Assembly: GCF_003574395.1 (NCBI RefSeq) | Contig: NZ_KZ984536.1 | Coordinates: forward strand, 167,322 to 231,321 | Length of the DNA: 64,000 nt | Source: Tabrizicola thermarum | GTDB taxonomy: Bacteria; Pseudomonadota; Alphaproteobacteria; Rhodobacterales; Rhodobacteraceae | Direction: 5' to 3' | Part shown: positions 39,684-59,464 of the stretch, in pieces | Layout: the number at the start of each line of letters is the position of its first letter | How positions within the stretch are numbered: the first letter of the stretch is position 1 | Position numbers and translations under genes: made by a program | The notes under the pieces: generated by a model | The model's input: only the letters and a program-made list of their open reading frames with translations | What the model was told of the DNA's origin: nothing | Databases searched by the model: none

Positions 39684-39758
39684 GCGGGCGTAGCTCAGGG
39701 GTAGAGCATAACCTTGCCAAGGTTAGGGTCGTGAGTTCGAATCTCATCGCCCGCTCCA
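39684..39758 (+). tRNA. tRNA-Gly (GCC)
   Basis: A 75-base cloverleaf including an encoded CCA end. Acceptor stem GCGGGCG/CGCCCGC, D-arm GTAGCTCAGGGGTAGAGC, anticodon GCC at 39716-39718 in a CCTTGCCAAGG stem-loop, and T-loop GTTCGAATC. A terminator follows. It marks the border between housekeeping genes and the surface-polymer/NRPS region to its right. Confidence 0.97.
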
Positions 39759-43705: not shown

Positions 43706-46700
43706 ATGAAGAACGGACTGCAGGACCTTCCGGCAGACACGGATATCGCCATCGTCGGCATGGCCGCGCACCTGCCGGGTGCCGCGGACATCGCCGCCTA
43801 TTGGGAAAACCTGCGCGAGGGTCGCAGCGCCGTGCGCCGCCTGACCGAGGCAGAGATTCTGGCCTCGGGCGAAAGCCCTGCCCTGCTGCGCAATCCGAAT
43901 TACGTCCCCGCCGCCGCCCTGCTGGAAGGCTACGACCGTTTCGACGCGGAATTCTTCGGTTTCTCCCCGAAGGAAGCCGCCATCCTCGACCCCCAGCACC
44001 GCCAGTTCCTGGAGGTCGCCTGGGAGGCGCTGGAAAACGCGGGCCACATGCCGGAAGGGTTCAAGGGCAGGATCGGCGTCTTCGCGGGCTGCGGGATGGG
44101 CAGCTACTTCTACTTCAACCTCTGCTCGAACCCCGCGCTGGTTGAAAGCACCGGCATGTTCCTTCTGCGCCACACGGGCAACGACAAGGATTTCCTGTCC
44201 ACCCGCGTCAGCCATGTCTTCGACCTCAAAGGCCCCAGCCTTGGCCTGCAGACCGCCTGCTCCACCTCGCTGGTCGCCACGCATTACGCGATCCAGGCGC
44301 TCTTGAACGGCGAATGCGACATGGCGCTGGCGGGCGGGGTCACGATCGACATGCCCCAGGGGCGCGGCTACCTCTACAAGGAGGGCGAGGTCCTGTCGCC
44401 CGACGGCGTCTGCCACGCCTTCGACCACCGCGCGCAGGGCACCGTTTTCGGCTCGGGCGCGGGCACGGTCCTTCTGCGCCGGCTGGAGGACGCGCTGGCC
44501 GATGGCGACCACATCTGGGGCGTCATCAAGGGCTCGGCCGTCAACAACGACGGGGCGGCGAAGGCTGGCTATCTGGCTCCTTCCGTCGAGGGTCAATCCG
44601 CCTGCGTCGCAACCGCCCTCGCCGTGGCCGGGACGCCTGCGGACACCATCGACTATGTCGAATGCCACGGCACCGGCACCTATCTTGGCGACCCCATCGA
44701 AGTCGCCGCCCTGACCGAGGCCTTCCGCCGCACCACCGACGCGAAAGGCTTCGCCAGGATCGGCAGCGTCAAGACCAACATCGGCCACCTCGACACGGCC
44801 GCCGGGGTCGCGAGCCTGATCAAGACCACGCTTGGCCTCTACCACGGCCAGATGCCGCCCAGCCTCAACTTTGAATCGCCGAACCCCGCCATCGACTTTG
44901 AGAACAGCCCGTTCCGGGTCAACGACCGGCTCTCCGACTGGCCCCGCCGCATGGGCCCCCGCCGCGCTGGCGTCAACTCGCTGGGCGTCGGCGGCACCAA
45001 TGCCTTTGTCGTGGTGCAGGAACCCCCGGCGCTGCCCGCCTCGGACCCCTCGGACTGGCCCTTCCAGCTTCTCACCCTTTCCGCCCGCAGCCAGTCGGCC
45101 CTTGGCGAAGCCTCGGCCCGCCTCGCCGCCCACCTCCGCGCGCATCCCGAACAGCCGCTGGCCGATGTGGCGTGGACGCTGAAGGAAGGCCGCCGCGCCT
45201 TTGAACATCGCCGCGTGCTGGTGGCGGGCAGCCACGAGGAAGCGGCGCAGATGCTCGAGGCCGGCGATCCCCGCCGCGTCTTCACCCAGCGCCGTCTGGG
45301 CGATGCCCCCGATGTCGTCTTCATGTTCCCCGGCGGCGGCGCGCAATACCCCAACATGGCGCGCGACCTTTACGAGACCGAACCCGTCTTTGCCGAATGG
45401 ATGGACCGGGGTCTGGCGGCGTTGGGCGATGCCGAAGCCGAAACCCGCGCGCTCTGGCTGCCCGCGAAAGGCCAGGAACAGGCCGCCGCCGAAGCGCTGC
45501 GCCAGCCGTCCAAGCAACTGCCGCTGATCCTGATCGTCGAGGTGGCGCTGGCGAAGCTGTGGGAAAGCTGGGGCGTGAAGCCCGCCGTCCTGATCGGCCA
45601 CAGCATGGGCGAAAACGCCGCCGCATGCGTGGCGGGCGTGATGACGCTGGAGGCCGCCGTGGGCCTTGTCCGCCTGCGCGGGCAGCTGTTCGACACCGTG
45701 CCTGCGGGGGGCATGCTGTCGGTCCCCCTCTCCGAGGCCGCGCTGAAACCCTACCTCGGCGATCTCGACATCGCCTCGGTCAATGCGCCGGAACTGACCG
45801 TCGTGTCCGGCTCTGATGCAGGGTTGAAGGACCTCGCGGAACGCCTGAAAGCCGACGGCATCGACACCACCCGCATCGCCATCGACATCGCGGCGCATTC
45901 CAGGATGCTGGAAAGCATACTGCCCGCCTTCCGCGCCCATCTGGCCGGGATGCAACTGTCACCCCCACAGATCCCGATCATCTCCAACCGCTCCGGCCGG
46001 ATCCTCACGGACGCGGAGGCCACCAGCCCCGACTACTGGGTCGCCCACCTGCGCAACACCGTCCGCTTCGCCGACGGCATGGCGACGCTCCGCCAGAAGC
46101 CCGACCGCGTGTATCTGGAGGTCGGCCCCGGCCGCGCGATGGCCTCGCTGGCGCAGGCCAACGGCGCGATGGGCGGCCAGCCGGTCCCCGCCAGCCTCCG
46201 TCACCCCGACGACACGGTCAGCGACGACCGCCACTTCATCGCCACCCTCGGCCGCCTCTGGGCCTGCGGGGCGGAGCCCGACCTGACCCAGCTCTGGGGC
46301 GAGGCGAAACGCCGCCGTGTCCCCCTGCCGACCTACCCCTTCCAGCGCAGCCGCTATTTCGTCGAACGCGGCCAGCCCGCTGTCACGACCGAGGCCGACC
46401 TGACCGCGAAACGCCACGACAGCGTGACCGACTTCGGCTACCGCATCGGCTGGCGCGTGATGCCCGCCGACTGCCCGGTGGACGTGGAAACCGAACTCGG
46501 GCCTGCCCTCACCTGGCTCGTCTTCGCCGATGAGGCGGGCCTTGCCCGCGCCGCCGTCCAGCGCCTGCGAGCCGCGAACCACCGCGTGATCACCGTCCAC
46601 GCCGGCGACGCCTTCGCCCGCACCTCGGACGACACCTATACGCTCGCCCCCGAACATGGGCGCGAAGGCTATGACGCCCTTCTCGCCGACCTCGCCCAGC

Positions 46701-49700
46701 GCGACCTGTCGCCCGCGCGGATCGCGCATTTCTGGCTGGTCACGGAAAAGGAAACCTTCCGCCCCGGCTCCTCCTTCTTCCAGCGCAATCTGGAGCAAGG
46801 GTTCTGGAGCCTCTTCTTCCTCGGCCAGGCCATCGCCGAGATCGGCCTGAAGCCCCTGCCCCATCTGACCGTCGTCACCTCCGGCGCGGCGCAGGTCCGC
46901 ACGGAAGCCCTGCCCTACCCCGAGAAAGCCACCGTCGCGGGCCCCGGCCGCGTGCTGCCGCGCGAACTGCCGGGGATCACGGCCAGCCTGCTGGACGTGA
47001 CGCTCGACAGGAAGATCCCGGCGGAAACCGTCTCGGCGGTGCTGGAGGAAATGCTCGCCACCCCGGCCAACACCGTTGCCGCCCTTCGTGGCAGCCGCAG
47101 GCTTGAAACCCGCCTCGTCCCCGCGAAACTGCCCGAACCGGCCGAGGTTCCCGAAGGCTCGGTCTGGGTCATCACCGGCGGCTTCGGCGGGATCGGCGTC
47201 ACCGTGGCCGAGCGCCTGATGCGCGACCGCCACGCCAGGGTCGCCCTGATCGGCCGCCATGTCCCCGAACCCGGATCGGTCCGCGCCGGGGTCCTCTCGC
47301 GCCTCGAACGCCTCGGCCGCGTGATGGCCGTCGCCGCCGACGTCTGCAACCCCGAGGACATGCGCGCCGCCTTCGACCGCGTCCGGTCCGAGTTCGGCCC
47401 GATCTACGGCGTCGTCCACGCCGCGGGCACCGTCGATGACGCCCCCCTTCTCGGCAAGGACCCCGGCTCTGCCGATGCGGTCCTGTCGCCCAAGGTCCAC
47501 GGCACGAAACTGCTCGATACGCTCCTCCCCGACGGCAGCGTCGACCGGATCGTGCTGTTCTCCTCGACCTCCACCGTCCTGACCCCCGCCGGTCAGGCCG
47601 ATTACGTCGCGGCGAACGAATACCTCAACGCCTTCGCCCGTTCCCGCTCCGGCGGCCGCACCCGCGTGACCGCGATCAACTGGGGCATCTGGTCCGGCAT
47701 CGGCATGGCCGCCGACGCCGACGCCCGCCGCCAGGGCAAGGACGCGGGCACCCCGCTGCCCGGGCAACTGGTCCTGGAACGGATGCAGAAGACCGAGGAT
47801 GAAACCCGTTTTCACGCGACCCTGACAAAGAACCACTGGGTCATGGACGACCACCGGCTTCTTGACGGCACCGCCGTCCTGCCCGGTTCCGCCTACCCGG
47901 AAATCGCAGGAGAAGCCCTTGCCGCAGCGGGTGCCAAACCCGGCTTCCAGCTGACCGACCTCACTGTCTTCCGCCCCCTGCGGCTGGAGGCCGACCTGCC
48001 CCGTGACCTGCGCGTGTCGCTGACCCGCAGCCGCGACGGCACCCAGCGCCTTCAGGCCCGCGCGCTGGAGCCGCAAGGCTGGGCGCTGACCGCCGAAATG
48101 GGGGTCACGCCCCTCGACACCCCCGCAGGGACCATCGACCTGTCTGCCATCGCCGCGCGCTGCCCTGACAAGGCCACCGCACCCGGCGGCGAAAACCTGC
48201 CCTCGGCGCAAGAGGACCGCATCGCCTTCGGGCCGCGCTGGCAGGTCCTGCGCGCGACGGCGCTGGGCAACCGCGAAGGTCTTGCAACCCTCTCCCTCCC
48301 GCCGCAGGCCGTGGCCGATACCGCGACCGCCGCGCTGCACCCCGCGCTTTACGACATCGGCACCGGTTGGGGGATCGCCCTGCTGCCGAAGGTGGCAGAG
48401 GGCTTCGTCTGGGCCCCCGTCACCACGACCTCTGTCCGCGTCCACGGCGCCCTGCCTGCCGAAATCCGCAGCTGGGTCCGCCTGTCCGGCACCCCCACCG
48501 AGGACACCGCCAGCTTCGACGTGACCCTCACCGACCCCATGGGCCGCGTGCTGGTCGAGGTCGAGGGCATCACCTTCCGCAAGGTCGCCTTCGAGGAGGC
48601 GCTGGCCAAACCCGCCGCCCCGAACCCGCGCGAAGTGATCCGCGACGACGAAAACCGCGCCCAGTCTCCGGCCGAACAGCGCCTTGCCGAGGCGCTTGCC
48701 GGCGGCATCCACCCCGCCGAGGGCGCCGAGGCCTTCCTGCGCGCCATCGCGGCGGACGGCGCACAGGTCCTTGTCTCCTCGCTCGATCTGGAAGCCCTGG
48801 TGAAACAGGCCAACGCCCCCGTCGCTGCGGAAAGCGAAGGCCCCGGTTTCGCCCGCCCCGACCTGGAAAGCGCCTATGTCGCGCCAAGGAACAGCGTCGA
48901 ACGCACCCTCGCGGCCTTCTGGGCCGAGCTTCTGGGCGTGTCCGAAGTGGGGGTCGAGGACGACTTCTTCGCCCTCGGCGGCCATTCCCTGATCGCCGTG
49001 CGCCTGTTCGCGATGATCCGGCGGCAGTGGAAGGTGGATTTCCCGATCTCGGTCCTGTTCGAGGCCCCGACCATCGCCCGCTGCGCCGCGCTCATCATCG
49101 ACCGCATCGGCCCGCAGGACGACAGCGCCCCTGCGCCGACGCAACTCGCCGATCCGGCCGGGCCGAAGTTCACCCATCTCGTCGCCATGCACCGGGGCGA
49201 AGGCGGGCCGAAGACCCCGTTCTTCCTGGTCGCCGGCATGTTCGGCAACGTGCTGAACCTGCGCCACCTTGCCAGCCTTCTGGGCACCGATCGCCCGTTC
49301 TACGGGCTTCAGGCCAAGGGCCTGTTCGGCGACGACAAGCCGCACATGACCATCGAGGAAGCCGCTGCCTCCTGCCTTGCCGAAATCCGGCAGGTGCAGC
49401 CGAAGGGCCCCTATCTGCTCGGCGGCTTCTCCGGCGGCGGGCTGACCGCCTGGGAAATTGGCCGGATGCTGCGCGCCCAAGGGGAGGAGGTGGCCCTCAT
49501 GGTCCTCCTCGACACGCCGCTCCCGGTGCGTCCGGTCCTGACCAGGCCGGACAAGGCCCTGATAAAACTGGCCGAAATCCGCGCCGGCGGTCCGAAATTC
49601 CTTGCACAGTGGGCAAAACGGCGCTGGGAATGGGAACGATCGCGTCGCGCCAGGGCCGCGAACGAACCCGACCCGACCGTGCCCTCCTACAACAACGCCG

Positions 49701-50029
49701 CCATCGAAGCCGCCTTCCGCCATGCGATCGGCGTCTATGATCTGAAGGCCTGGGAGGACGGCAATGTCGTCCTCTACCGCCCGCCCCTGGACCGCCGCTT
49801 CAAGGTCACGGGGGGCAACTGGGTGTCGGAGGCCCGGGAATACGTCTTCCACGACAACCTCTGGACGCCCTATGCGCCCCGGCTGACCGTGGTCGAGGTG
49901 CCGGGCGATCACGATTCGATGGTGCTGGAACCGAACGTGCGCGTTCTTGCCGCACGGATGAAGGCGGCGATCCAGGCCGCCGAAGCTGGCGAGTCCCGCC
50001 ACCCCGACCGTAGACTTGCCGCCGAATGA
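43706..50029 (+). CDS. type I polyketide synthase, KS-AT-KR-DH-ACP-TE
   Basis: A 2107-residue one-module synthase. KS (13-435) has Cys185 (TACSTS), His321 (ECHGTGT) and His361 (NIGHLDTAAG). AT (about 535-830) has Ser633 in GHSMGE and IAAHS as its second motif, which leaves malonyl versus other extender open. KR (structural half from about 890, catalytic ITGGFGGIG near 1157, Tyr1300). A dehydratase-type hot-dog domain (about 1370-1620) carries His1383 but an extra residue in HxxxGxxxxP and a DxxxG in place of DxxxQ. ACP Ser1761 (GGHSL). TE (about 1830-2090) has Ser1909 (GGFSGGG) and His2069. DH follows KR, the reverse of the usual order. It is followed 12 bases later by the NRPS gene. Confidence 0.95.
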   Translation: MKNGLQDLPADTDIAIVGMAAHLPGAADIAAYWENLREGRSAVRRLTEAEILASGESPALLRNPNYVPAAALLEGYDRFDAEFFGFSPKEAAILDPQHRQFLEVAWEALENAGHMPEGFKGRIGVFAGCGMGSYFYFNLCSNPALVESTGMFLLRHTGNDKDFLSTRVSHVFDLKGPSLGLQTACSTSLVATHYAIQALLNGECDMALAGGVTIDMPQGRGYLYKEGEVLSPDGVCHAFDHRAQGTVFGSGAGTVLLRRLEDALADGDHIWGVIKGSAVNNDGAAKAGYLAPSVEGQSACVATALAVAGTPADTIDYVECHGTGTYLGDPIEVAALTEAFRRTTDAKGFARIGSVKTNIGHLDTAAGVASLIKTTLGLYHGQMPPSLNFESPNPAIDFENSPFRVNDRLSDWPRRMGPRRAGVNSLGVGGTNAFVVVQEPPALPASDPSDWPFQLLTLSARSQSALGEASARLAAHLRAHPEQPLADVAWTLKEGRRAFEHRRVLVAGSHEEAAQMLEAGDPRRVFTQRRLGDAPDVVFMFPGGGAQYPNMARDLYETEPVFAEWMDRGLAALGDAEAETRALWLPAKGQEQAAAEALRQPSKQLPLILIVEVALAKLWESWGVKPAVLIGHSMGENAAACVAGVMTLEAAVGLVRLRGQLFDTVPAGGMLSVPLSEAALKPYLGDLDIASVNAPELTVVSGSDAGLKDLAERLKADGIDTTRIAIDIAAHSRMLESILPAFRAHLAGMQLSPPQIPIISNRSGRILTDAEATSPDYWVAHLRNTVRFADGMATLRQKPDRVYLEVGPGRAMASLAQANGAMGGQPVPASLRHPDDTVSDDRHFIATLGRLWACGAEPDLTQLWGEAKRRRVPLPTYPFQRSRYFVERGQPAVTTEADLTAKRHDSVTDFGYRIGWRVMPADCPVDVETELGPALTWLVFADEAGLARAAVQRLRAANHRVITVHAGDAFARTSDDTYTLAPEHGREGYDALLADLAQRDLSPARIAHFWLVTEKETFRPGSSFFQRNLEQGFWSLFFLGQAIAEIGLKPLPHLTVVTSGAAQVRTEALPYPEKATVAGPGRVLPRELPGITASLLDVTLDRKIPAETVSAVLEEMLATPANTVAALRGSRRLETRLVPAKLPEPAEVPEGSVWVITGGFGGIGVTVAERLMRDRHARVALIGRHVPEPGSVRAGVLSRLERLGRVMAVAADVCNPEDMRAAFDRVRSEFGPIYGVVHAAGTVDDAPLLGKDPGSADAVLSPKVHGTKLLDTLLPDGSVDRIVLFSSTSTVLTPAGQADYVAANEYLNAFARSRSGGRTRVTAINWGIWSGIGMAADADARRQGKDAGTPLPGQLVLERMQKTEDETRFHATLTKNHWVMDDHRLLDGTAVLPGSAYPEIAGEALAAAGAKPGFQLTDLTVFRPLRLEADLPRDLRVSLTRSRDGTQRLQARALEPQGWALTAEMGVTPLDTPAGTIDLSAIAARCPDKATAPGGENLPSAQEDRIAFGPRWQVLRATALGNREGLATLSLPPQAVADTATAALHPALYDIGTGWGIALLPKVAEGFVWAPVTTTSVRVHGALPAEIRSWVRLSGTPTEDTASFDVTLTDPMGRVLVEVEGITFRKVAFEEALAKPAAPNPREVIRDDENRAQSPAEQRLAEALAGGIHPAEGAEAFLRAIAADGAQVLVSSLDLEALVKQANAPVAAESEGPGFARPDLESAYVAPRNSVERTLAAFWAELLGVSEVGVEDDFFALGGHSLIAVRLFAMIRRQWKVDFPISVLFEAPTIARCAALIIDRIGPQDDSAPAPTQLADPAGPKFTHLVAMHRGEGGPKTPFFLVAGMFGNVLNLRHLASLLGTDRPFYGLQAKGLFGDDKPHMTIEEAAASCLAEIRQVQPKGPYLLGGFSGGGLTAWEIGRMLRAQGEEVALMVLLDTPLPVRPVLTRPDKALIKLAEIRAGGPKFLAQWAKRRWEWERSRRARAANEPDPTVPSYNNAAIEAAFRHAIGVYDLKAWEDGNVVLYRPPLDRRFKVTGGNWVSEAREYVFHDNLWTPYAPRLTVVEVPGDHDSMVLEPNVRVLAARMKAAIQAAEAGESRHPDRRLAAE

Positions 50030-50041
50030 CCGGAGACTGAC

Positions 50042-53000
50042 ATGACCCTGACCGCCCTTCTGATCGGCAATGAAAGTCTGACGGTGGAATGCGGCAAGCG
50101 CTGGCTGGAGCAGGGGCACCAGCTTGCAGCCGTCGTCACGCGCGAACCCAGGGTCGCCGCCTGGGCCTCGGGCGCCGGGCTTCGGGTCATCGCGCCGGGC
50201 GCAGGCCTGGTCGAGCGGACCAAGGGGCTAAGCGTGGACTGGCTGCTCTCGGTTGCCAATCTCTCTCTGGTGGCCGCCCCGGTCCTGGCGCTGGCGCGGC
50301 AGGGCGGCGTCAACTTCCACGACGGCCCGCTTCCCGGCTATGCCGGTCTCAACGCCCCGGTCTGGGCGCTTCTCAACGGTGAGGCGACCCACGCCGTCAC
50401 CTGGCACCTGATGACCCAGGGCATCGACGAGGGCGAGGTGCTGGCCACCCGCCGTTTCGAGATCGAACCCGACGACACCGCCTTCACCCTGAACGCCCGC
50501 TGCTTCAGCGCCGCCCTCGACAGCTTTGCCGAAGTGATGGCGGCGCTGGAGGCGGGCGGCCACCCGCGCCAGCCGCAGGCGTCGGGCGCGCGCAAGGTCT
50601 GGCGACGCGCCGACCGCCCGGCAGCGGCAGCGCGGCTTGACTTCACCCGCCCGGCCGAGGCGGTCGCCCGCCAGGTCCGCGCGCTGGATCATGGCGGCTA
50701 CCGCAACCCGCTGTCGGTCCCGAAGATCGAGGCCGCCGGTCAGGTCTGGGCCGTGGGTCTGGCCGAGGTCGTACCCGGCTCTGCCGCCCCCGGCACCGTG
50801 CTGGCGCGCGATGCCGACAGCCTTACCGTCGCCTGTGCCGAAGGCGCGGTGCGCCTGTCGCACCTCAGCTGTCTCAAGGGCCTGCCCATCGACACCGCCC
50901 GGGCTGGCGCCTCGCTCGCCTCGCCCGACGCAGCGGAAGCTGCCCGCCTGGACGCGGCCCTCAGCCCGACCGCCGAGGCCGAAGTCCGCCTGCGCGGCCT
51001 GCTTCTCCGCCCCGATCCTGTCCTTGCCGCCGCCACCGGACCGCAGGACTGGCACCAGATCCCGCTTTCGGGTCCGGCCGCCTCTGCCGCCCGGATCGCT
51101 CTCGCCGCGATCCGCGCCCTTGGCCGCACCGGCGGCGACATCGCACTGGCCCTGGCCAGCGACCCCTCCCCGGGCTACCTGCTCCCCTGGGTGCCGGTGC
51201 GGCTGGAGGCGTCGGGATCGGTCATCGACGCCGAAACCCGCACCGCAGGCGCGCTTGACGCGGGCCGGGCCGCAGGTGGCCTTGCCGCCGATCTGGCCCT
51301 GCGTGAGCCCGGACTGACCGGCCTGCACCCTTCGGGCCTTGCCATCTCTGACGGAACGACCCCTCTCACCGGCAGCGTCATCACGATCTCGACCGCCGGA
51401 CCGGTGACCCTCTGGCATGATGCGGCGCGCCTTCCTGCGCCCGAGGCCGCGCGACTGGCCGACCGGATCGCCCGGCTTCTGTCCGCCATGGCCGCCACGC
51501 CCGACGCCGATCTGGCCGGCTTCTCCCTGCTCTCGGAACAGGAAATCCGCGCCTGTTCCGGTGCGCTGGCCGCGACGGCCCGCGATTACGACCGGCAGAT
51601 CACCCTGCCCGGCGCGATCCTGGCCCAGGCCGCCCGCACGCCCGAGGCGACCGCCGTCATCGCGGGCGATACCCGCCTCACCTACGCCGAACTCGCCGAC
51701 CGCGCCGCCCGCATCGCCAATACCCTGCGCGGCATGGGCGTCCGGCGCGGCGCTCTCGTGGGTCTCGCCTGCTCCCGCTCCACCGACATGGTCGCGGGCG
51801 CGCTGGGGATCCAGTTGGCCGGTGCCGCCTATGTCCCGATGGACCCGGCCTACCCCGCCGATCGCCTGGCCCTTTATGCCGAGGATTCGGGCTGCCCGGT
51901 CATCGTCACCGAAAGCGCCGTCGCCCAGGCGCTGCCCAAAGGCCCCGCGCTCCTTGTCCTGGACACCGACCAGCGCCTTGCCACCGCCGCGACGACCCGG
52001 CCCGCCGAGGGCCCGACTGCGGACGACCCGGCCTATGTGATCTACACCTCCGGCTCCACCGGCCGCCCCAAGGGCGTCGTGGTCGGCCACCGCAACGTGA
52101 TGAACTTCTTCGCGGGGATGGATGACGTGCTGGGCACCGATCCCGGCACCTGGCTTGCGGTCACCTCGCTGTCCTTCGACATTTCGGTGCTCGAGCTGTT
52201 CTGGACCCTGACCCGTGGCTTCACCGTGGTCCTCGCTAACGAAAGCGCCCGCGTCCGTCCCTCGGGCGACAGCGCGATCAATCCCCGCAAGATGGACTTC
52301 TCGGTCTACTACTGGGGCAATGACGACCTGCCCGGCCCCTCGAAATACGAGCTTCTCCTCGAAGGCGCCAGGTTCGCCGACCAGAACGGCTTTGTCGCGA
52401 TCTGGACGCCCGAACGCCACTTCCACGCCTTCGGCGGCCCCTACCCGAACCCCGCCGTCACGGGTGCGGCGGCGGCGGCCATCACCCGGAACATCGGCGT
52501 CCGCGCCGGGTCCATCGTCGCGCCCCTGCACCACCCCGCCCGCATCGCCGAGGAATGGGCGGTCATCGACAACCTGACCAACGGTCGCGCCGGGATGGCC
52601 TTCGCCTCGGGCTGGCAGCCCGACGATTTCATCCTGCGGCCCGAGAACACACCCCCCGCGAACCGTCAGGCGCTGTTCGAGTCCCTCGAGGCCGTGCGCA
52701 GGCTCTGGCGTGGCGAAGCGGTGGAGTTTCCCCGCAAGGACGGCACCCCCTTCGCCGTGGTGACCCAGCCGCGCCCGGTCTCCAGAGAGGTCGAGGCCTG
52801 GGTGACCACCGCCGGCAACCCCGAAACCTGGCGCGAGGCGGGCCGGATGGGCGCACATGTGCTGACCCACCTCCTGGGCCAGTCGATCGCCGAGGTTGCA
52901 GAGAAGGTGAAACTCTACCGCGCCGCACTGGCCGAGGCGGGGCATGACCCGTCCCGCTTCAAGGTGACGCTGATGCTGCACACCTTCCTGGCCGAAGACC

Positions 53001-54670
53001 GGGAAACCGCGCGCAACATCGCGCGTGAACCGATGAAAAGCTACCTCCGCTCGGCGGCGGGTCTCATCAAGCAATACGCCTGGGCTTTCCCGGCCTTCAA
53101 GAAGCCGCAAGGTCTGGCCAATCCGATGGACATCGACCTCGGGTCGCTTGCCCCCGATGAACTGGAAGCCATCCTCGACTTCGCCTTCCAGCGCTATTTC
53201 GACGACTCCGGCCTGTTCGGCACCGTGGACGACGCCGTGAAACGGGTCGAGGGGCTCAAGGCCATCGACGTCGACGAAGTCGCCTGCCTGATCGACTACG
53301 GCATCCCGACGACTGTGGTGCTCGAGGGGCTGCGGCATGTGGCCGAGGTGCTGCGCATCACCAATTCCGGGGCCGGGGACGACGATTCGATGGCGGGCCT
53401 GATCCACCGCCATGCCGTCACACATCTGCAATGCACCCCGTCGATGGCGCGGATGCTGGCCGAAGACGACGGCGCCCGCGCTGCGCTGAAACGGCTGAAG
53501 CGGATGCTTGTCGGGGGCGAGGCGCTGATGGGCCGTCTGGCCGGCGATCTCTCCGGCCTGATCGGCGCGCCGGTCCTGAACATGTATGGCCCGACCGAGA
53601 CGACGATCTGGTCCTCGGTCGAGGCGACGACCGGCGAGGATGGCGTGGTCAACATCGGCCAACCCATTGCGAACACCGCGCTTTATGTGCTGGACGACAC
53701 CCAGGCCCCGGTCGCGGATGGCCAGGAGGGCGAACTCTGGATCGGCGGCGAAGGTGTCGCGCACGGCTATTTCCAGCGCCCCGACCTGACCGCCGAGCGC
53801 TTCCGCCCCGACCCCTTCGCAGGCCATGGCCGGATGTACCGCACGGGCGACCTTGTCCGCAAACGTGCCGACGGCAAGCTCGATTACCTCGGCCGCGCCG
53901 ACTTCCAGGTCAAGATCCGCGGCCACCGGATCGAACTGGGCGAGATCGAGACCGCGCTCGAAGCCGCGCCGGGCATCCGCCAGGCCGTCGTCGTCGCGCG
54001 CGAGGATCAGCCCGGGGATGTCCGTCTGGTGGCCTATGTCACCGCCGCTGGCCCGGTCGATGCCGCCGCCCTGAAAGCGACCCTTGCGGAACACCTGCCC
54101 GAGGTCATGGTGCCCGCCCATATCGTGAAGCTCGACGCCTTCCCGCTCACCCCGAACGGCAAGGTCGACCGCAAGGCGCTGCCCGCGCCCTTCGCGGCGT
54201 CCCCCGCCACCGCCGCCGCCACACCCGAGCCCCTGGCCGCGACTGCGCCCTCTCCGACACCCGCCGCGGCGCCCGCAGTCACCGTTGCGGGCAACCTCGA
54301 AGAGGCCATCGCCGCGGTCTGGGCCCGCGTCCTTGGCGTGCCGCAGGTCGGCCGGTCCGACAACTTCTTCACCCTCGGCGGCCATTCGCTCTTGGCCGTG
54401 CAGGCCCACCGCGAGATGAAGGTGGCGCTCAACTCCGACCGGCTGGCGATCACCGACATCTTCCGCTTCCCCGTCGTCTCGGCGCTGGCGGCGCATCTGG
54501 GCAAATCGATCACCGTGGTGCCGACGCCCGTCCAGTCCATCGCCGCAGCCGCGCCCCCCGCCGCCTCGACAGCTGCGGCAGCCACCGGCGACACGGCCGC
54601 CGACAGCCGGATGGATGCGATGGCCCGCCGCCGGGCGATGCGCGAAGCGCGGGAGAAGGCGCTGGGATGA
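50042..54670 (+). CDS. NRPS loading-type protein: formyltransferase-A(Gly)-[luciferase-like monooxygenase insert]-PCP
   Basis: 1542 residues. N-terminal methionyl-tRNA-formyltransferase-like domain (1-290) with catalytic Asn91, His93 and Asp129 at canonical spacing. A ~220-residue stretch without HHxxxDG follows, so there is no working condensation domain. Adenylation domain: A3 YTSGSTGRPKG near 665, A4 FDIS at 712-715. It is interrupted at about 735-1105 by an FMN-dependent luciferase-like monooxygenase of the MupA/Atu3671 type (WTPERHFHAFGG, GRAGMAFASGWQPDDF), then resumes with A5 YGPTET and A10 NGKVDRK. Pocket residues D713, I714, L717, Q1130, L1156, G1158, M1181, I1189, W1190 and K1374 give the glycine code. 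PCP Ser1449, then an Ala/Pro-rich tail. Confidence 0.94.
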   Translation: MTLTALLIGNESLTVECGKRWLEQGHQLAAVVTREPRVAAWASGAGLRVIAPGAGLVERTKGLSVDWLLSVANLSLVAAPVLALARQGGVNFHDGPLPGYAGLNAPVWALLNGEATHAVTWHLMTQGIDEGEVLATRRFEIEPDDTAFTLNARCFSAALDSFAEVMAALEAGGHPRQPQASGARKVWRRADRPAAAARLDFTRPAEAVARQVRALDHGGYRNPLSVPKIEAAGQVWAVGLAEVVPGSAAPGTVLARDADSLTVACAEGAVRLSHLSCLKGLPIDTARAGASLASPDAAEAARLDAALSPTAEAEVRLRGLLLRPDPVLAAATGPQDWHQIPLSGPAASAARIALAAIRALGRTGGDIALALASDPSPGYLLPWVPVRLEASGSVIDAETRTAGALDAGRAAGGLAADLALREPGLTGLHPSGLAISDGTTPLTGSVITISTAGPVTLWHDAARLPAPEAARLADRIARLLSAMAATPDADLAGFSLLSEQEIRACSGALAATARDYDRQITLPGAILAQAARTPEATAVIAGDTRLTYAELADRAARIANTLRGMGVRRGALVGLACSRSTDMVAGALGIQLAGAAYVPMDPAYPADRLALYAEDSGCPVIVTESAVAQALPKGPALLVLDTDQRLATAATTRPAEGPTADDPAYVIYTSGSTGRPKGVVVGHRNVMNFFAGMDDVLGTDPGTWLAVTSLSFDISVLELFWTLTRGFTVVLANESARVRPSGDSAINPRKMDFSVYYWGNDDLPGPSKYELLLEGARFADQNGFVAIWTPERHFHAFGGPYPNPAVTGAAAAAITRNIGVRAGSIVAPLHHPARIAEEWAVIDNLTNGRAGMAFASGWQPDDFILRPENTPPANRQALFESLEAVRRLWRGEAVEFPRKDGTPFAVVTQPRPVSREVEAWVTTAGNPETWREAGRMGAHVLTHLLGQSIAEVAEKVKLYRAALAEAGHDPSRFKVTLMLHTFLAEDRETARNIAREPMKSYLRSAAGLIKQYAWAFPAFKKPQGLANPMDIDLGSLAPDELEAILDFAFQRYFDDSGLFGTVDDAVKRVEGLKAIDVDEVACLIDYGIPTTVVLEGLRHVAEVLRITNSGAGDDDSMAGLIHRHAVTHLQCTPSMARMLAEDDGARAALKRLKRMLVGGEALMGRLAGDLSGLIGAPVLNMYGPTETTIWSSVEATTGEDGVVNIGQPIANTALYVLDDTQAPVADGQEGELWIGGEGVAHGYFQRPDLTAERFRPDPFAGHGRMYRTGDLVRKRADGKLDYLGRADFQVKIRGHRIELGEIETALEAAPGIRQAVVVAREDQPGDVRLVAYVTAAGPVDAAALKATLAEHLPEVMVPAHIVKLDAFPLTPNGKVDRKALPAPFAASPATAAATPEPLAATAPSPTPAAAPAVTVAGNLEEAIAAVWARVLGVPQVGRSDNFFTLGGHSLLAVQAHREMKVALNSDRLAITDIFRFPVVSALAAHLGKSITVVPTPVQSIAAAAPPAASTAAAATGDTAADSRMDAMARRRAMREAREKALG

Positions 54671-55323
54671 CCCAGCCCTCCCGGCTGAAGCGGATCGAGA
54701 CGGCGCTGGCCGCATTGTTCCCGGCGGATGTGGCCGTGGCGCTCTGCACTCTGCCCGCCGCCGACCCGCGCGACCTCTGGCCTGCGGAACGTCCGGCCGT
54801 GGCCGGGGCTGTCCCGGCGCGCCTGGCCGAATTTGCCGCCGGACGACAGGCCGCCCGCACGGCGCTTTCGGCCCTTGGCCTGCCCCCCGTCGCGCTGCCG
54901 ATGGGGCCGGACCGCGCACCCGTCTGGCCTGACGGCATCGCCGGGTCCATCGCCCATGCCGCCGGTCTGGCCGTCGCCGTCGCCCGCCGCGGCGCGCCCC
55001 TTGGCGTCGATGTCGAGCACGACAGCCCCCTGCCCGATGACCTCTGGCCCACCCTCACCTCGCCCGAGGAACGCGCCGCCTTCCCGCCGGGCGAAACGGG
55101 CCGACAGGTCCGCCGCGTCTTCGCCGCCAAGGAGGCGCTCTTCAAGGCCCAGGCCCAGGGCGCGCGGGCCATGTTCGGCTTCGACGCCGTGCGCGTGACC
55201 CTTGTCGAGGACGGGTTCGATGCCCAGTTCCTCTGCGATGCCGGGGCCTTCCGCACCGGCGATCGGGTGCGGGGGCGGTTGGCGCGCGTCGAAGGGCTGA
55301 TACTGGCAGGGGTGGCACGGTGA
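54667..55323 (+). CDS. 4'-phosphopantetheinyl transferase (Sfp/EntD type)
   Basis: A 218-residue enzyme that arms carrier proteins. N-terminal EntD-like RQAARTALSALG and AGSIAHAAGLAVAVA, the metal site PLGVDVEHDS, and the Mg-binding FAAKEALFKAQ block are present. Its start overlaps the NRPS stop by four bases. It is therefore made with, and very probably dedicated to, the ACP of the PKS and the PCP of the NRPS. Confidence 0.93.
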   Translation: MTQPSRLKRIETALAALFPADVAVALCTLPAADPRDLWPAERPAVAGAVPARLAEFAAGRQAARTALSALGLPPVALPMGPDRAPVWPDGIAGSIAHAAGLAVAVARRGAPLGVDVEHDSPLPDDLWPTLTSPEERAAFPPGETGRQVRRVFAAKEALFKAQAQGARAMFGFDAVRVTLVEDGFDAQFLCDAGAFRTGDRVRGRLARVEGLILAGVAR

Positions 55324-56276
55324 CGATGATGACACGACGCACGGCGATCCTCGGCGGCCTTCTGTCAGCACTTGGCGCGGGCGGGCTTTACTGGCAGCTG
55401 ACGCGCGCGCCCTCTGCCGCCTCGGTCAGGACGCGGCTTGCGGCGGCATCGGTCCCGAAACCCGACAGACCGCTGACCGTCTTTCACCTTGGCCACAGCC
55501 TGGTGAACCGGGACATGCCCGCGATGCTGGCCCAGCTTGCTCCCCCGGGGCACCGCTACGACAGCCAGCTGGGCTGGGGCACCACCTTGCAGGCCCACTG
55601 GGGCGACGCGCCGATCAACGGGTTCGAGGCCGAGAACGCCCATCCCCGCTTTCGCCCCGCGCTCGAGGCCGTGCGCAGCGGCGACTACGACGCCATCGTC
55701 CTGACCGAGATGGTCGAGATCCGCGCCTCGATCCGCTATTACGACAGCCCTGAATACCTCGCAAAATGGGCGATGGAGGCGCTGAAGGCCCGGCCCGACG
55801 TGCGTCTTTACCTCTACGAGACCTGGCACCAGCTGGACGATCCAGAAGGCTGGCTGGAACGGCTGGACGCCGACCACGACCGCTACTGGCTCTCGCGTGT
55901 CCTCGGCCCCGCGCTGAAACGCCTGCCCCAGGGGGCGCAGATATTCCTGATCCCGGCGGGCCAGGTCCTTGCCGCCTTCGTCCGCGCGGTCGAGGCGCAG
56001 GGCGGCCTCGGCAATGTCCGCGACCGGACCGACCTCTTTTCCCGGGCCGAGGATGGCACGCTGGACGTCATCCACCTCAACGACATCGGCAACTACCTCG
56101 TGGCATTGGTCCACCATGCGGTGCTCTATCAGCAAAGCCCGGTGGGCCTGCCCCATGCCCTTCTCCGCGCCGATGGCACCCCGGCAACCGCCCCCGAGCC
56201 TCAGGTCGCGCGGCTGATGCAAGAGACGACCGATTCTGTCGTTCACAACTTGGGCTTGTCCGGCTTCACCGCGTGA
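55320..56276 (+). CDS. exported SGNH-hydrolase-like protein in the PKS/NRPS operon
   Basis: A 318-residue protein with a twin-arginine-like or plain signal/anchor segment (TRRTAILGGLLSALGAGGLYW). FHLGHSLVNRDM follows, where Ser60 fits SGNH block I, then the glycine block LGWGTTL, VLTEMVEI, and DVIHLND with Asp249/His252 in the DxxH of block V. It is likely a periplasmic or membrane-bound esterase/acyltransferase. The Asn of block III is not evident. The start GTG overlaps the PPTase stop by four bases, so it belongs to the same translational unit. Acting on the released polyketide product or on the polysaccharide is inference. Confidence 0.7.
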   Translation: MTMMTRRTAILGGLLSALGAGGLYWQLTRAPSAASVRTRLAAASVPKPDRPLTVFHLGHSLVNRDMPAMLAQLAPPGHRYDSQLGWGTTLQAHWGDAPINGFEAENAHPRFRPALEAVRSGDYDAIVLTEMVEIRASIRYYDSPEYLAKWAMEALKARPDVRLYLYETWHQLDDPEGWLERLDADHDRYWLSRVLGPALKRLPQGAQIFLIPAGQVLAAFVRAVEAQGGLGNVRDRTDLFSRAEDGTLDVIHLNDIGNYLVALVHHAVLYQQSPVGLPHALLRADGTPATAPEPQVARLMQETTDSVVHNLGLSGFTA

Positions 56277-56442
56277 TGTTGCATATCCGCCACCACGGGC
56301 GGCAATGGTGGTCTTCCAGGGTCCTGCGGGCCATCAGGAAGCCGGTTCGGGTGGAATTCCCCTTTCCGATCGGCGTCAGGCCAAATATCCTGCCCTGAAT
56401 GCAGCTCACCCGGATTTTGCGGGCCGCTATGGAGAGTTTTCG

Positions 56443-57051
56443 ATGTTCATCCTTCGCCGTCTCGTCGCCGCCCTGTTCCTCTTGCCGATCCTGGCCCTGA
56501 CAGCCGCTGCCCAGGACTACCGCATCCGCCCCGGCGACGTGCTGCAGATCGAGGTTCTCGAGGACGCAACGCTGAACCGCAGCGCGATCGTGCTGCCCGA
56601 CGGCCAGATCTCGCTGCCGGTCGCGGGCACGGTCCGCGTCGCCGGACGCAGCATCGCCGAAGTCCAGGCCGACCTTGTCCGTCGCCTCGCTCCGGGCTTC
56701 GCGTCCACCCCGACGGTCTTCGTGACGCTCAGCGCCCTTGCCGAACGTCCTGCCGGCACCGCGGCCGCAGCGCGCACCATCGACATCTACATCCTCGGCG
56801 CCGCGAACAGCCCCGGCAAGATCGAGGTTTCGCCCGGCACCACCCTGCTGCAGGCGATCGCACAGGCCGGCGGCGTATCGCCCTTCGGCGCGAAGAAACG
56901 CATCCAGCTCCGCCGCGTCGACAAGTCCGGCAACGAGCAGGTCTACAGGCTTGACCTCGACGCCATCGAGCGCGGCGCCTCGGCTGGCGGCACCACGCGC
57001 CTGGTGAAAGGCGACGTCATCGTCATCCCGCAGCGCAAACTGTTCGAGTAA
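56443..57051 (+). CDS. Wza-like polysaccharide export protein (short form)
   Basis: A 202-residue protein with a signal peptide (LVAALFLLPILALTAAAQ), the Poly_export domain (YRIRPGDVLQIEVLED, LPDGQISLPVAGTVRVAG) and one SLBB domain (IYILGAANSPGKIEV to RLVKGDVIVIPQR). No lipobox cysteine and no C-terminal membrane helix, so it is a short periplasmic Wza variant rather than a full outer-membrane channel. GGAGAG precedes ATG 56443. It starts 166 bases after the SGNH gene and six bases before the beta-barrel gene, which probably supplies the outer-membrane pore. Confidence 0.9.
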   Translation: MFILRRLVAALFLLPILALTAAAQDYRIRPGDVLQIEVLEDATLNRSAIVLPDGQISLPVAGTVRVAGRSIAEVQADLVRRLAPGFASTPTVFVTLSALAERPAGTAAAARTIDIYILGAANSPGKIEVSPGTTLLQAIAQAGGVSPFGAKKRIQLRRVDKSGNEQVYRLDLDAIERGASAGGTTRLVKGDVIVIPQRKLFE

Positions 57052-57057
57052 TTCGGA

Positions 57058-58395
57058 ATGCGCCATACCGGCCACCTGATCGGAGGGGTCTGCGCCCTTG
57101 GCGCGGCTCTTGTGCCCGGCGCAAGCCGTGCGCAGGAGGGTGGCCTCTTGCTGCGGTTCGGGATCGAGAACCGGCTGGAGATCACTCGCAATTCCGGCCT
57201 CTCCGTCCCGGCGGAGGGGACCGAAGTCGCCAATGCCACGCTGCTGTCCTTCGGCCTGTCCAGTGAAACCACCATCGACCGGCTGACCTTCGATGTGACC
57301 GGCGGGGTGATCGCTCAGAATACCGACGACGGCAGCGAGATCGACTTCGGTCGCACCGCGCTGACCTTCGGCTACCACCGCGAGGTTCCCGCTGCCGTGC
57401 TGGATCTGGCTGCCGAATTCCGCACCGACGATGCCGATGCCTTTGGCGACGATCTCGGCGATGTCGGCGCCGTCGGCTCCCGCAGCGATCTGTCCCTGTC
57501 GGCGCGGCTGGAAACAGGCCGCACTTCCGGCGTCGGCCTCGCCCTCGGCGTCGCCTACGACCAGACCAGATATCAGGACACCATCGACCCCGATCTGGTC
57601 GACACCACCGAATGGCGCGGTGACGTGGCCGCGATCCTGCATTTTTCCGAAGTGGCAACCGGCCGTGTCGGCCTGCGCTATCGCCACCGCGAGGAAGACG
57701 ATCTCGGCACCACCACCACGGATGCCACCACCGTCTTCGCCGGGCTCGACTATTCGCTGTCGGAACGGACGGATCTGTCGGTCGAACTCGGCTACACCGA
57801 AACCGAAACCGAAGACGGCGGCGTCATTGACCGGGACACCGGCCCCGATGCCAGCGTCCGGCTGTCCTACGACATGCCGGTCGGCACGGCCTATGCCCTC
57901 CTCGGCGTCACGACCGATGCCGACGAAGGCCAGCGCCAGACGTTCGAGATCGGCCGCGCGCTGGAAGCCCGGCGTGACACCCTCTCGGCCCGCCTGGGGG
58001 TGACCCATGGCGACCGGACGGGCACCGATCTGATCGGATCGCTGGAATGGACCCGCGCCCTGCCGGATGGCAGCATCGGCGTGACCGCCGAACGCCGCGT
58101 CAGCTATGACGCCGACACTGACGAAGGCGTCACCGATTCGATCTTCAGCCTGACCTGGGCGAAGACTCTGAACGACACCACATCTGTCCTGTTCGGCGCC
58201 ACCTACGAAAACAGCGATTCGGCGTCGGAACGGATCGAACAGGTCTCGTTCGACGCGGGCGTAAGCCATAGGCTGACCGCCGACTGGAGCCTGTCGGGCG
58301 GCATGGGCTACACCGTGCGCCACGATGCAGACGGTCGTGCGGAATCGCCCAGACTTTTCGTCGCGCTCAGCCGGGACTTCCTGTTCCGGCCCTGA
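57058..58395 (+). CDS. outer-membrane beta-barrel protein of the EPS export locus
   Basis: A 445-residue protein with a signal peptide (GGVCALGAALVPGASRAQ) and repeating amphipathic strands of alternating charged and hydrophobic residues, each ending in Asp/Glu/Thr turns (for example LEWTRALPDGSIGVTAERRVSY). It ends in RDFLFRP, an aromatic C-terminal signal seen in barrels. Many strand pairs resemble the barrel proteins paired with Wza-type proteins in exosortase-linked loci. It may form the pore for the polymer. The last 29 bases overlap the convergent methyltransferase gene. Confidence 0.75.
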   Translation: MRHTGHLIGGVCALGAALVPGASRAQEGGLLLRFGIENRLEITRNSGLSVPAEGTEVANATLLSFGLSSETTIDRLTFDVTGGVIAQNTDDGSEIDFGRTALTFGYHREVPAAVLDLAAEFRTDDADAFGDDLGDVGAVGSRSDLSLSARLETGRTSGVGLALGVAYDQTRYQDTIDPDLVDTTEWRGDVAAILHFSEVATGRVGLRYRHREEDDLGTTTTDATTVFAGLDYSLSERTDLSVELGYTETETEDGGVIDRDTGPDASVRLSYDMPVGTAYALLGVTTDADEGQRQTFEIGRALEARRDTLSARLGVTHGDRTGTDLIGSLEWTRALPDGSIGVTAERRVSYDADTDEGVTDSIFSLTWAKTLNDTTSVLFGATYENSDSASERIEQVSFDAGVSHRLTADWSLSGGMGYTVRHDADGRAESPRLFVALSRDFLFRP

Positions 58396-59380
58396 CCCAG
58401 GGCCTCCTGGCTCGGGCGAACAGCCCGATGCAATCGTACTTCCGATCCGGCGGCGCAAAGGCCGACCGTGCCAGCAGCGCCAGATCGCGGCCGAGCGTTC
58501 GGCGCGGTGTCACCTTGCCTCCCCCATTGTCCCGCAAGCGCCGGTGCACCTGGTTCTCCCAGGCCCGCCACCCGGGCGAGAAATGCCGCGTCCGGCCATG
58601 GTGCACTTCCTCCACGATCTCGAACCCGGCTTCTTCCATCAACCGGCGCAGCGATTGCGGCGTGAAGAACTTCAGGTGCCGCGGCACGTCCAGCATTTCT
58701 GAGATCTCGGCATAGGTCTGGAAATGCAGTGCCGCGCAATTCGGCACCTCGCAGTAGAACCCGCCCCCCGGCGCCAGCAGCCCGTGCACATTGCGCAAGG
58801 CGCGCCCCGGATCGGCGCAATGCTCCAGCACATGGGTCATCAGGATCAGGTCGAACCTCTGCTCCCTCACCGAGGGCGGGATCGCCTCGGCCGTGCCCGC
58901 CTCGACCGTGACACCCCGGCCTGCCGCGACCTCTCGCGCCTTTGGGTCGGGATCGACGCCGAACAGCTCCCTCCCGGGCGCAGCCAGCGTCGCGACGAAA
59001 TCCCCCCCGCCGCAGCCGATGTCCAACACGCGCCGGGCCTCGGGTTGCAGCGCCTGCAGCCGGGCGGCATCCATCATCCGGCCCTGATCCGTCAGCCAGG
59101 CCAGCTTGACCAGCACCCGGTCCACCGGCCCGGCGGCCACCTCGGGGAAATGCGACTGGCCATGCGTGTAATAGGCCGCCATGTCGTAGCTGACCCGCAC
59201 TTCCTCGGGCGTCAGTTCCCGGCGCATCAGCCCGACATCGCAGGCCCGGCACCACACCAGCCCGCCCGAGCTGATCGCCTGCCCCGTCTTCACATCAATC
59301 GGAATGTCCAACCAGGGCGTCAACTCTGCCGCCGGTGTCGCGCAAATCGGACAACGCGGCGTGTCTACAGGATCGTCCAT
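58367..59380 (-). CDS. class I SAM-dependent methyltransferase with N-terminal zinc-ribbon-like motif
   Basis: A 337-residue methyltransferase. The first 45 residues contain CPIC and CRAC pairs, a likely zinc ribbon. The SAM site is VLDIGCGGGDFVATL with acidic strand GVDPDPKA, then MTHVLEHCADP, and a C-terminal helical part. Similar proteins modify sugar residues or lipids in polysaccharide loci. The exact acceptor is unknown. It overlaps the barrel gene by 29 bases at the 3' end. An 84-base gap separates it from the glycosyltransferase upstream. Confidence 0.86.
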   Translation of the reverse strand: MDDPVDTPRCPICATPAAELTPWLDIPIDVKTGQAISSGGLVWCRACDVGLMRRELTPEEVRVSYDMAAYYTHGQSHFPEVAAGPVDRVLVKLAWLTDQGRMMDAARLQALQPEARRVLDIGCGGGDFVATLAAPGRELFGVDPDPKAREVAAGRGVTVEAGTAEAIPPSVREQRFDLILMTHVLEHCADPGRALRNVHGLLAPGGGFYCEVPNCAALHFQTYAEISEMLDVPRHLKFFTPQSLRRLMEEAGFEIVEEVHHGRTRHFSPGWRAWENQVHRRLRDNGGGKVTPRRTLGRDLALLARSAFAPPDRKYDCIGLFARARRPWVRAGTGSPG

Positions 59381-59464
59381 GCGAAAGGTCCCGTTCGTTT
59401 GAAAATGGCTTATTCAGAAATAAGCATTCTTCGCCCGGAGACACCCAGCTGGCGCGAAAAAACT

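What the first reader, a model, noticed from the sequence alone, without database searches (positions are those of the whole stretch)
43706..56276. Compact hybrid PKS-NRPS operon embedded in a polysaccharide export locus
Seen: PKS, NRPS, PPTase and SGNH-type hydrolase are consecutive on the plus strand with a 12-base gap or four-base overlaps, and Wza-like and barrel genes continue in the same direction. The minus-strand side holds kinase, Wzz-like and ExeA-like ATPase genes, and five glycosyltransferases follow. Established: kinase/Wzz/Wza sets export surface polysaccharides. Inference: the assembly line makes a small formylamide-type acyl group that is attached to, or exported with, the polymer, with the SGNH protein as acyltransferase or esterase. 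I know of no described system of this layout.
Basis: partly seen in the sequence, partly recalled or inferred. Interest (0 to 1): 0.9.

Follow-up and report, generated by a model that had tools for sequence, protein, structure and literature searches.

The report
Polyketide-peptide assembly line in polysaccharide locus
Two giant enzymes of a kind usually linked to antibiotics sit inside, and appear to travel with, the genes for a bacterial surface polysaccharide and one particular glycosyltransferase, so they probably make a small chemical group for that polymer, which would give a function to a common orphan gene cluster.

Summary
Confirmed: KS-AT-KR-DH-ACP-TE PKS, F-A-PCP NRPS, PPTase and SGNH genes lie as stated inside a polysaccharide locus. 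The tie to polysaccharide holds. A family-2 glycosyltransferase, GT2a, occurs in 28 of 30 genomes judged to have the pair and 0 of 71 others. It lies between PKS and NRPS in 63 of 80 named loci; 75 of 80 show two or more glycan-gene families, GT2a counted; hand-picked control loci show 0-1 in 18 of 19. The export set is exchangeable: TIGR03015 accompanies the pair in 19 of 20 genomes of the genus, 0 of 10 in other genera. Best reading: a dedicated line turns glycine plus malonate into a C4 unit for the polymer. Product and attachment are inferred; by MOX precedent the formamide may be lost. Such pairs are catalogued as orphan clusters; my searches found no paper linking them to polysaccharide. 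Against: a related line in Aliiroseovarius lies outside glycan genes.

The parts
43706..50029 (+). Type I PKS, 2107 aa: KS about 43739-45019, AT about 45317-46150, KR about 47162-47695, DH about 47780-48589, ACP about 48905-49096, TE about 49223-49975
   Evidence: catalytic residues of the six domains kept in 23 aligned rows, the TE end missing from one truncated row
50042..54670 (+). NRPS loading module, 1542 aa: formyltransferase domain about 50042-50869; residues about 280-500 match no domain model; A domain about 51539-52276 and 53357-54187; PCP about 54305-54499
   Evidence: no condensation-domain match reported
52298..53350 (+). MupA/Atu3671-type FMN-dependent luciferase-like monooxygenase (MOX) inserted in the A domain between motifs A4 and A5
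   Evidence: TIGR04020 470.4 bits, cut-off 244.45
54667..55323 (+). Sfp/EntD-like phosphopantetheinyl transferase; one of only two ACPS-family matches in the genome
55320..56276 (+). SGNH-fold protein with N-terminal hydrophobic helix; Ser60, Asp249, His252 invariant in 27 aligned sequences
56443..57051 (+). Wza-like polysaccharide export protein (an upstream start at 56305 is possible)
57058..58395 (+). Outer-membrane beta-barrel protein, weakly like TIGR03016
42181..43281 (-). ExeA-like ATPase (TIGR03015-like, below cut-off: 239.8 of 324.5 bits)
40621..42180 (-). Wzz-like chain-length determinant (TIGR03007-like, below cut-off)
39811..40614 (-). Tyrosine autokinase (TIGR03018-like, below cut-off)
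59465..60412 (-). GT2a, family-2 glycosyltransferase, the most strictly co-occurring of the three partners tested genome-wide; lies between the PKS and NRPS genes in most of the named loci read
60409..61152 (-). WecG/TagA/CpsF-type glycosyltransferase overlapping GT2a by 4 bases
61385..62287 (+). Family-2 glycosyltransferase (GT2b)
62297..63541 (+). Family-4-type glycosyltransferase (GT4a)
63551..64000 (-). Family-2 glycosyltransferase (GT2c), continues past the window to 64483 in window numbering
58367..59293 (-). SAM-dependent methyltransferase; in few relatives only

Best explanation
The PKS, NRPS, PPTase and often the SGNH protein form a dedicated two-protein assembly line that makes one small acyl unit for the surface polysaccharide built by the same locus. 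Shown by sequence: complete domain sets with conserved catalytic residues, a glycine-MOX type A domain, an F domain with the N-H-D triad, a PPTase in the operon, and genome-wide co-occurrence with one glycosyltransferase (GT2a). Inferred order: PPTase arms both carriers; the NRPS loads glycine, the F domain formylates it and the inserted FMN monooxygenase oxidises C-alpha; the PKS takes this starter, adds one malonyl unit, reduces and dehydrates it; the TE passes the C4-type acyl to an acceptor. The acceptor is probably a sugar handled by GT2a, acylated on the cytoplasmic side before export, because no MBOAT or AT3 membrane acyltransferase was found among the window-locus genes scanned. The SGNH protein would then trim or rearrange the group after export. 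The starter may keep its formamide (hydroxylated or not) or lose it as formamide to leave a glyoxylyl starter; sequence cannot decide.
For: Domains; catalytic residues. A code DILQLGMIWK equals the code reported for four MOX-bearing glycine A domains (PMC12283262, passages). MOX in glycine A domains hydroxylates C-alpha (PMC11342130, passages). Co-occurrence: GT2a in 28 of 30 genomes judged to have the pair and 0 of 71 without; SGNH 24 of 30 and 0 of 71, in G057 on another contig than the pair. Position: GT2a between PKS and NRPS in 63 of 80 loci, elsewhere in the stretch in 12, not found in 5; 4-base overlaps on both sides in Paracoccus marcusii. At least 2 of 15 glycan-gene families (GT2a being one of the 15) in 75 of 80 stretches; control loci 0-1 in 18 of 19. 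Same setting in Hydrogenophaga, Aminobacter and Shinella. The PKS holds the only ketosynthase match in a PKS-sized frame of the window's genome (2152 aa; the other matches lie in frames of 406-807 aa).
Against: No chemistry is shown: no structure of the polymer or product. The Fisher values treat related genomes as independent. Two genomes have the pair without GT2a (G004, listed as 100% complete; G006, 80%), and in L101, L108 and L110 the best GT2a match is only 35-37%. The small SGNH protein is missing from 5 of 10 other-genus genomes, though the large SGNH-like protein is in the locus of each of those five. LLM-bearing relatives exist outside glycan loci (Aliiroseovarius, Streptomyces, Nostoc); the Aliiroseovarius one even has the F domain with its triad. 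Methylobacterium showed NRPS and PKS with one weak glycan match. TolC or type I secretion genes lie near the pair in Aminobacter and Shinella. MOX precedent would remove the formamide, which makes the F domain's role unclear. No acyl-transfer enzyme is identified.
Confidence: 0.6

Rival explanations
1. The assembly line makes a free secreted small molecule (signal, metallophore, antibiotic) and merely shares a region with polysaccharide genes, the TE hydrolysing the product.
For: TE with GxSxG and His kept fits hydrolysis; hybrid clusters of this type are described in print as potential producers of bioactive compounds (PMC10584327, passages); a related line in Aliiroseovarius lies next to nos and other non-glycan genes; TolC or type I secretion genes near the pair in Aminobacter and Shinella and an ABC transporter in the window's locus could export a metabolite.
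Against: GT2a co-occurrence 28 of 30 against 0 of 71 and its place between the two genes in 63 of 80 loci; persistence in glycan loci with different export sets in different genera.
Confidence: 0.15
2. The product is not a side group but a structural part of the lipid-linked intermediate or chain: GT2a glycosylates the assembly-line product, which is then a backbone or end-cap residue.
For: GT2a encoded between PKS and NRPS with 4-base overlaps in P. marcusii suggests that it works directly with the product; the product could carry a hydroxyl at the oxidised glycine carbon (inference).
Against: The locus has its own initiating sugar transferase and several other glycosyltransferases, so a sugar chain can be made without it; no direct test.
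Confidence: 0.15
3. The link is genomic only: the pair is carried as cargo in glycan loci because such loci exchange genes often, with no biochemical link.
For: Glycan loci are exchange hot spots (recalled); the pair is on plasmids in several Alphaproteobacteria.
Against: The export genes change between genera while GT2a and the pair stay together; SGNH is kept in G057 although on another contig; other PKS/NRPS-like loci do not share the setting in 18 of 19 cases.
Confidence: 0.1

Closest known systems
Orphan NRPS-like/T1PKS hybrid cluster of Roseibaca and relatives (PMC10584327, passages)
   Same: NRPS gene 4,527 nt and PKS gene 6,333 nt, locus tags 00765 and 00767, so one tag in a gap of about 1 kb between them, as in PKS-GT2a-NRPS here; the hybrid type reported in 18 of the 37 species analysed
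   Different: There treated as a source of bioactive molecules; the words polysaccharide and glycosyltransferase do not occur in its main text. Identity of the clusters is my inference from sizes and order, not an alignment, and the 18 may include other hybrids
Phaeobacter inhibens PKS Inhi_1972 and NRPS Inhi_1974 (PMC4062626, passages)
   Same: PKS and NRPS separated by one locus tag
   Different: No function assigned in the passages read; not aligned here
MOX-bearing glycine A domains of myxothiazol and melithiazol synthetases (PMC11342130, PMC12283262, passages)
   Same: Monooxygenase inserted in a glycine A domain; the code reported for four MOX-bearing glycine domains is the window's
   Different: There the amide is released and glyoxylate is removed by the terminating TE; here the module has an F domain in front, no recognisable C domain, and a separate PKS that carries the TE
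F-A-PCP initiation module of linear gramicidin synthetase LgrA
   Same: Formyltransferase fused to A and PCP with no upstream condensation
   Different: Here the F domain scores higher with ArnA and sugar N-formyltransferases than with LgrA, and a MOX is inserted
XrtA/PEP-CTERM exopolysaccharide export set
   Same: Kinase, Wzz-like, ExeA-like ATPase and Wza-like genes match its models
   Different: All four score below the curated cut-offs and no exosortase match in the genome. XrtA loci can hold a small acyl-CoA ligase set (recalled; its ligase model TIGR03098 matched the NRPS A domain only far below cut-off)
Mycobacterial PKS enzymes that acylate trehalose (recalled)
   Same: A PKS makes an acyl group for a sugar
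   Different: Long-chain lipids on a disaccharide; no NRPS loader, no polysaccharide export locus

Membership tests
MOX-containing glycine-activating NRPS module | Luciferase-like monooxygenase of TIGR04020 inserted in the A domain | tested here: met
   470.4 bits against cut-off 244.45; residues 753-1103 between A4 and A5
MOX-containing glycine-activating NRPS module | A-domain code DILQLGMIWK | tested here: met
   Window code identical; DILQ(L/M/F)GMIWK in 80 of 80 rows counted (window plus 79 of the 80 named loci), two of these with one position unreadable; literature code
MOX-containing glycine-activating NRPS module | Terminal module that releases an amide | tested here: not met
   No C domain match, F domain in front, TE on the PKS
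F-A-PCP initiation module | Formyltransferase with Asn-His-Asp triad, A and PCP, no functional C domain | tested here: met
   N-H-D in 80 of 80 rows
Type I modular PKS | KS, AT, KR, DH, ACP, TE with catalytic residues | tested here: met
XrtA/PEP-CTERM EPS system | Export proteins above NCBIfam cut-offs | tested here: not met
   239.8 of 324.5, 154.3 of 278.85, 99.5 of 180 and 110.5 of 230.65 bits
XrtA/PEP-CTERM EPS system | Exosortase in the genome | tested here: not met
   0 matches to PF09721 at E <= 0.001
Wzx/Wzy-dependent polysaccharide locus | Initiating sugar transferase, Wzx, Wzy, Wzz | tested here: inconclusive
   Window locus: sugar transferase and Wzz-like yes, Wzy-like weak (20.7 of 31.7 bits), no Wzx recognised but an ABC transporter; a Wzx-type family in 8 of 9 other-genus loci, one member scanned
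SGNH hydrolase superfamily | SGNH fold with catalytic Ser and DxxH | tested here: met
SGNH hydrolase superfamily | Hydrolase or acyltransferase activity | not testable with these tools
   needs an assay

The most novel reading that the evidence does not exclude
A new class of polysaccharide decoration: a two-protein assembly line burns an N-formylglycine starter through its MOX domain to a glyoxylyl or alpha-hydroxyformamido starter, extends it once to a reactive C4 unit (4-oxo- or 4-formamido-4-hydroxy-but-2-enoyl) and places it on the repeat unit, where it could crosslink or bind surfaces. It would be shared by many Rhodobacteraceae, Hydrogenophaga and some rhizobial relatives whatever export machinery they use.
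Probability: 0.2. Interest if true: 0.9.

Novelty: new variant of a known kind. Interest (0 to 1): 0.74.

Why it matters
A hybrid NRPS-like/T1PKS cluster was reported in 18 of the 37 species of one survey and called unknown (PMC10584327, passages). In the relatives examined here the pair occurs in 30 of 61 family genomes (20 of 32 in the window's genus, which was over-sampled, and 10 of 29 in other genera). If it decorates surface polysaccharide, bioprospecting for a free product is looking in the wrong fraction, and the question of what it makes becomes testable by polymer analysis. A PKS-NRPS working for a polysaccharide would also join two fields that seldom meet, and the alternative products have distinct masses.

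Tried and rejected
Rejected: an XrtA/PEP-CTERM system proper (below-cut-off matches, no exosortase). Rejected: a general tie to this particular export set (no homologue of the window's ATPase, Wza-like or barrel protein detected in the 9 other-genus loci; TIGR03015 in 0 of 10 other-genus genomes with the pair). Against that rejection: the ATPase lies beside the pair in 6 of 7 Hydrogenophaga loci, and Wza-like and barrel matches lie beside it in L170. Rejected: the plus-strand ORF 58724-60487 as a gene (no family match; minus-strand genes called there). Not decided: G053 holds fragments like both proteins (NRPS pieces 51-54%, PKS 46%); I counted it as lacking the pair. Broken or contig-split copies (G006, G012, G015, G018, G029, G040, G059 among them) were counted as having it. 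G030 lacks TIGR03015 but its contig begins near the PKS.

Limits of the counts. The 80 named loci are the best 80 of 530, so distant relatives are under-read. One search had 91 rows; 80 (window plus 79 named loci) were tallied, one named locus gave no row. Of 28 plasmid records I read 13 stretches; two of these carry no annotation. Glycan genes were detected with queries taken from loci that carry the pair, which favours them: the same queries scored Aminobacter 1 and Deinococcus 0 although annotated neighbours include glycan genes; Methylobacterium scored 1 and Neorhizobium 6. The 19 control loci (14 genomes, 13 loci in the same family) were picked by hand from the weaker matches; two are the undecided G053 fragments, some (for example G055b) may be lone adenylating enzymes, five are contigs of 6-9 kb. 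Without G053 the control is 16 of 17. Five named loci have fewer than two glycan families: four short contigs (10-19 kb) and L112 (25 kb). L112 (labelled Curvibacter) falls inside Rhodobacteraceae in the tree, so its label is doubtful. The tree is a quick one and places long branches unsurely. Foldseek alone gave weak TM-scores for the SGNH model; the fold rests on VIA-align and the residues.

Paper searches that listed no paper tying the pair to polysaccharide: (open PMC papers only; some searches listed 25 of 75, 20 of 152 and 10 of 73 papers, and I opened few of them). Papers read as passages only: PMC11342130, PMC8739492, PMC10584327, PMC11225332, PMC4062626, PMC4359443, PMC12283262. PMC8739492, PMC11225332 and PMC4359443 gave nothing decisive.
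Full report
Observation. PKS 43706-50029, NRPS 50042-54670, PPTase 54667-55323 and SGNH 55320-56276 follow one another on plus with a 12-base gap and two 4-base overlaps. A codon-based caller of my own agrees and starts the Wza-like gene at 56443. To the left on minus lie the ATPase, Wzz-like and kinase genes; to the right the Wza-like and barrel genes, a methyltransferase and five glycosyltransferases. The locus runs on for some 11 kb past the window with a weak Wzy-like gene, a GT4, a 2OG-Fe(II) oxygenase, an ABC transporter, an initiating sugar transferase and a weak PIG-L-like gene. I did not scan the genes beyond.

What the two big proteins are. The PKS reads KS-AT-KR-DH-ACP-TE. The catalytic residues of all six domains are kept in 23 aligned rows, apart from the TE end of one truncated row. 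The NRPS reads formyltransferase, about 220 residues without a domain match, A domain, PCP; no condensation-domain match was reported. The formyltransferase triad Asn-His-Asp is present in 80 of 80 rows counted. In the PDB the F domain scores best with ArnA and sugar N-formyltransferases and more weakly with LgrA.

Substrate. I read the ten specificity positions from motifs (PheA numbering and motif positions recalled). They give DILQLGMIWK in the window and DILQ(L/M/F)GMIWK in 80 of 80 rows, two with one unreadable position. A 2025 comparison of A-domain codes reports that four glycine-activating domains with a MOX all share exactly DILQLGMIWK (PMC12283262, passages). Another paper states that the MOX of myxothiazol and melithiazol lies in glycine A domains and hydroxylates C-alpha, after which the amide is lost and glyoxylate stays on the carrier (PMC11342130, passages). 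So glycine as substrate is well supported and oxidation at C-alpha is the best inference. Whether the N-formyl group survives is open. That is the main correction to 'formylamide-type acyl group'.

Order of work. The NRPS has a loading-type layout and the TE is on the PKS, so I infer NRPS first, PKS second, against the gene order. One malonyl extension with KR and DH would give a C4 but-2-enoyl unit. AT specificity for malonyl is assumed, not shown.

Linkage tests. In 101 genomes (window's genome plus 100 relatives) the pair was judged present in 30: 20 of 32 in the genus, 10 of 29 in other genera of the family, 0 of 40 outside. GT2a at E <= 1e-50 is in 28 of these 30 and in 0 of the other 71; the two misses are G004 and the incomplete G006. 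The SGNH protein at E <= 1e-8 is in 24 of 30 and 0 of 71; in the five other-genus genomes without it the large SGNH-like protein lies in the locus. TIGR03015 at E <= 1e-30 is in 19 of 30 and 17 of 71: 19 of 20 within the genus, 0 of 10 in other genera with the pair. Only these three partners were tested genome-wide. Fisher values are; relatedness makes them too small. In G057 the SGNH gene is on another contig than the pair and is still kept.

Neighbourhoods. In nine other-genus loci (39-40 kb each) the order is PKS, GT2a, NRPS, mostly then PPTase, with Wzz-like, kinase, GT2c, and mostly GT4a, WecG-type, Wzy-like and Wzx-type genes around; no homologue of the window's ATPase, Wza-like or barrel protein was detected in the nine. 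A scan of named genomes gave 530 relatives, of which the best 80 were kept. GT2a lies between PKS and NRPS in 63, elsewhere in the stretch in 12, and was not found in 5; 75 of 80 have at least two of 15 glycan families, GT2a being one; PPTase in 72, SGNH in 28, large SGNH in 11. Seven Hydrogenophaga loci are among them and form one supported group in the tree, which suggests transfer between classes although its exact place is open; in six of the seven the ATPase homologue lies before the PKS. Of 28 plasmid records matched I read 13 stretches. Glycan settings are annotated around the pair in Parasedimentitalea, two Ruegeria, two Paracoccus, Aminobacter and Shinella; in P. marcusii PKS, GT2 and NRPS overlap by 4 bases each. 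In a Deinococcus plasmid a related NRPS without F domain and a PKS (38%, TE motif not aligned) lie near capsule genes. LLM-bearing relatives of Aliiroseovarius, Streptomyces and Nostoc do not lie in glycan loci; the Aliiroseovarius one has the whole F-A-MOX-PCP layout (42%) with a longer partner of 3082 aa, and it groups with a Methylobacterium copy outside the set that holds the window, whose stretch gave one weak glycan match. Nineteen other PKS/NRPS-like loci from 14 of the same genomes had 0-1 glycan families in 18 cases and 6 in one, G019; their choice and the detection bias are described under Tried and rejected.

Mechanism and confidence. That the pair serves the polysaccharide is my firm conclusion (about 0.8). 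That it makes a C4 acyl group from glycine and malonate is likely (about 0.5). That the group is placed on a GT2a-linked sugar before export and later handled by the SGNH protein is a proposal (about 0.35). The overall figure given is 0.6.

Known or new. Such gene pairs are in print as orphan hybrid clusters: in Roseibaca the NRPS (4,527 nt) and PKS (6,333 nt) are separated by one locus tag in about 1 kb, and hybrids of the type were found in 18 of 37 species (PMC10584327, passages); in Phaeobacter inhibens PKS and NRPS tags are Inhi_1972 and Inhi_1974 (PMC4062626, passages). My equation of these with the present pair rests on size and order. I found no paper that ties the pair to polysaccharide in the listings of searches of open PMC papers. 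I call it a new variant of a known kind: every part belongs to a known family, the combination and the proposed job do not.

Noticed in passing
L075-L076 (G019:C25): A different, multimodular NRPS-PKS (open frame 3375 aa) lies beside an XrtA-like ATPase/Wzz/kinase set in a genus member that lacks the pair described here.
   Followed up: partly
window 39684-39758: A tRNA-Gly gene lies directly beside the kinase end of the locus and may mark an insertion boundary.
   Followed up: no
L036:16938-19859 and relatives: A large (about 840-985 aa) SGNH-like protein, in one case with an RTX-type repeat match, replaces or joins the small SGNH protein in many other-genus loci.
   Followed up: partly
G004:C3, G005:C28, G011:C14, G029:C205, G030:C76: Matches of 43-45% to the inserted monooxygenase alone, in open frames of 375-419 aa (one with a stop inside the match), occur in five genus members; role unknown.
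   Followed up: no
L182 (Deinococcus actinosclerus plasmid): NRPS with the same A-LLM-PCP part but no formyltransferase, followed by a PKS, near CapK and UDP-glucose dehydrogenase genes.
   Followed up: partly
L112 and L146: Records labelled Curvibacter and Exiguobacterium carry NRPS copies that fall inside the Rhodobacteraceae in the tree; the labels are doubtful.
   Followed up: partly
L176:4015-5667: A VPLPA-CTERM exosortase gene (xrtD) and a rhamnose set lie upstream of the pair in Ruegeria conchae.
   Followed up: no
L003:9722-10561: A 2OG-Fe(II) oxygenase gene (window numbering 67400-68239) is kept at 76-94% identity beside the glycosyltransferases in six genus members; it may modify the same polymer.
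   Followed up: no
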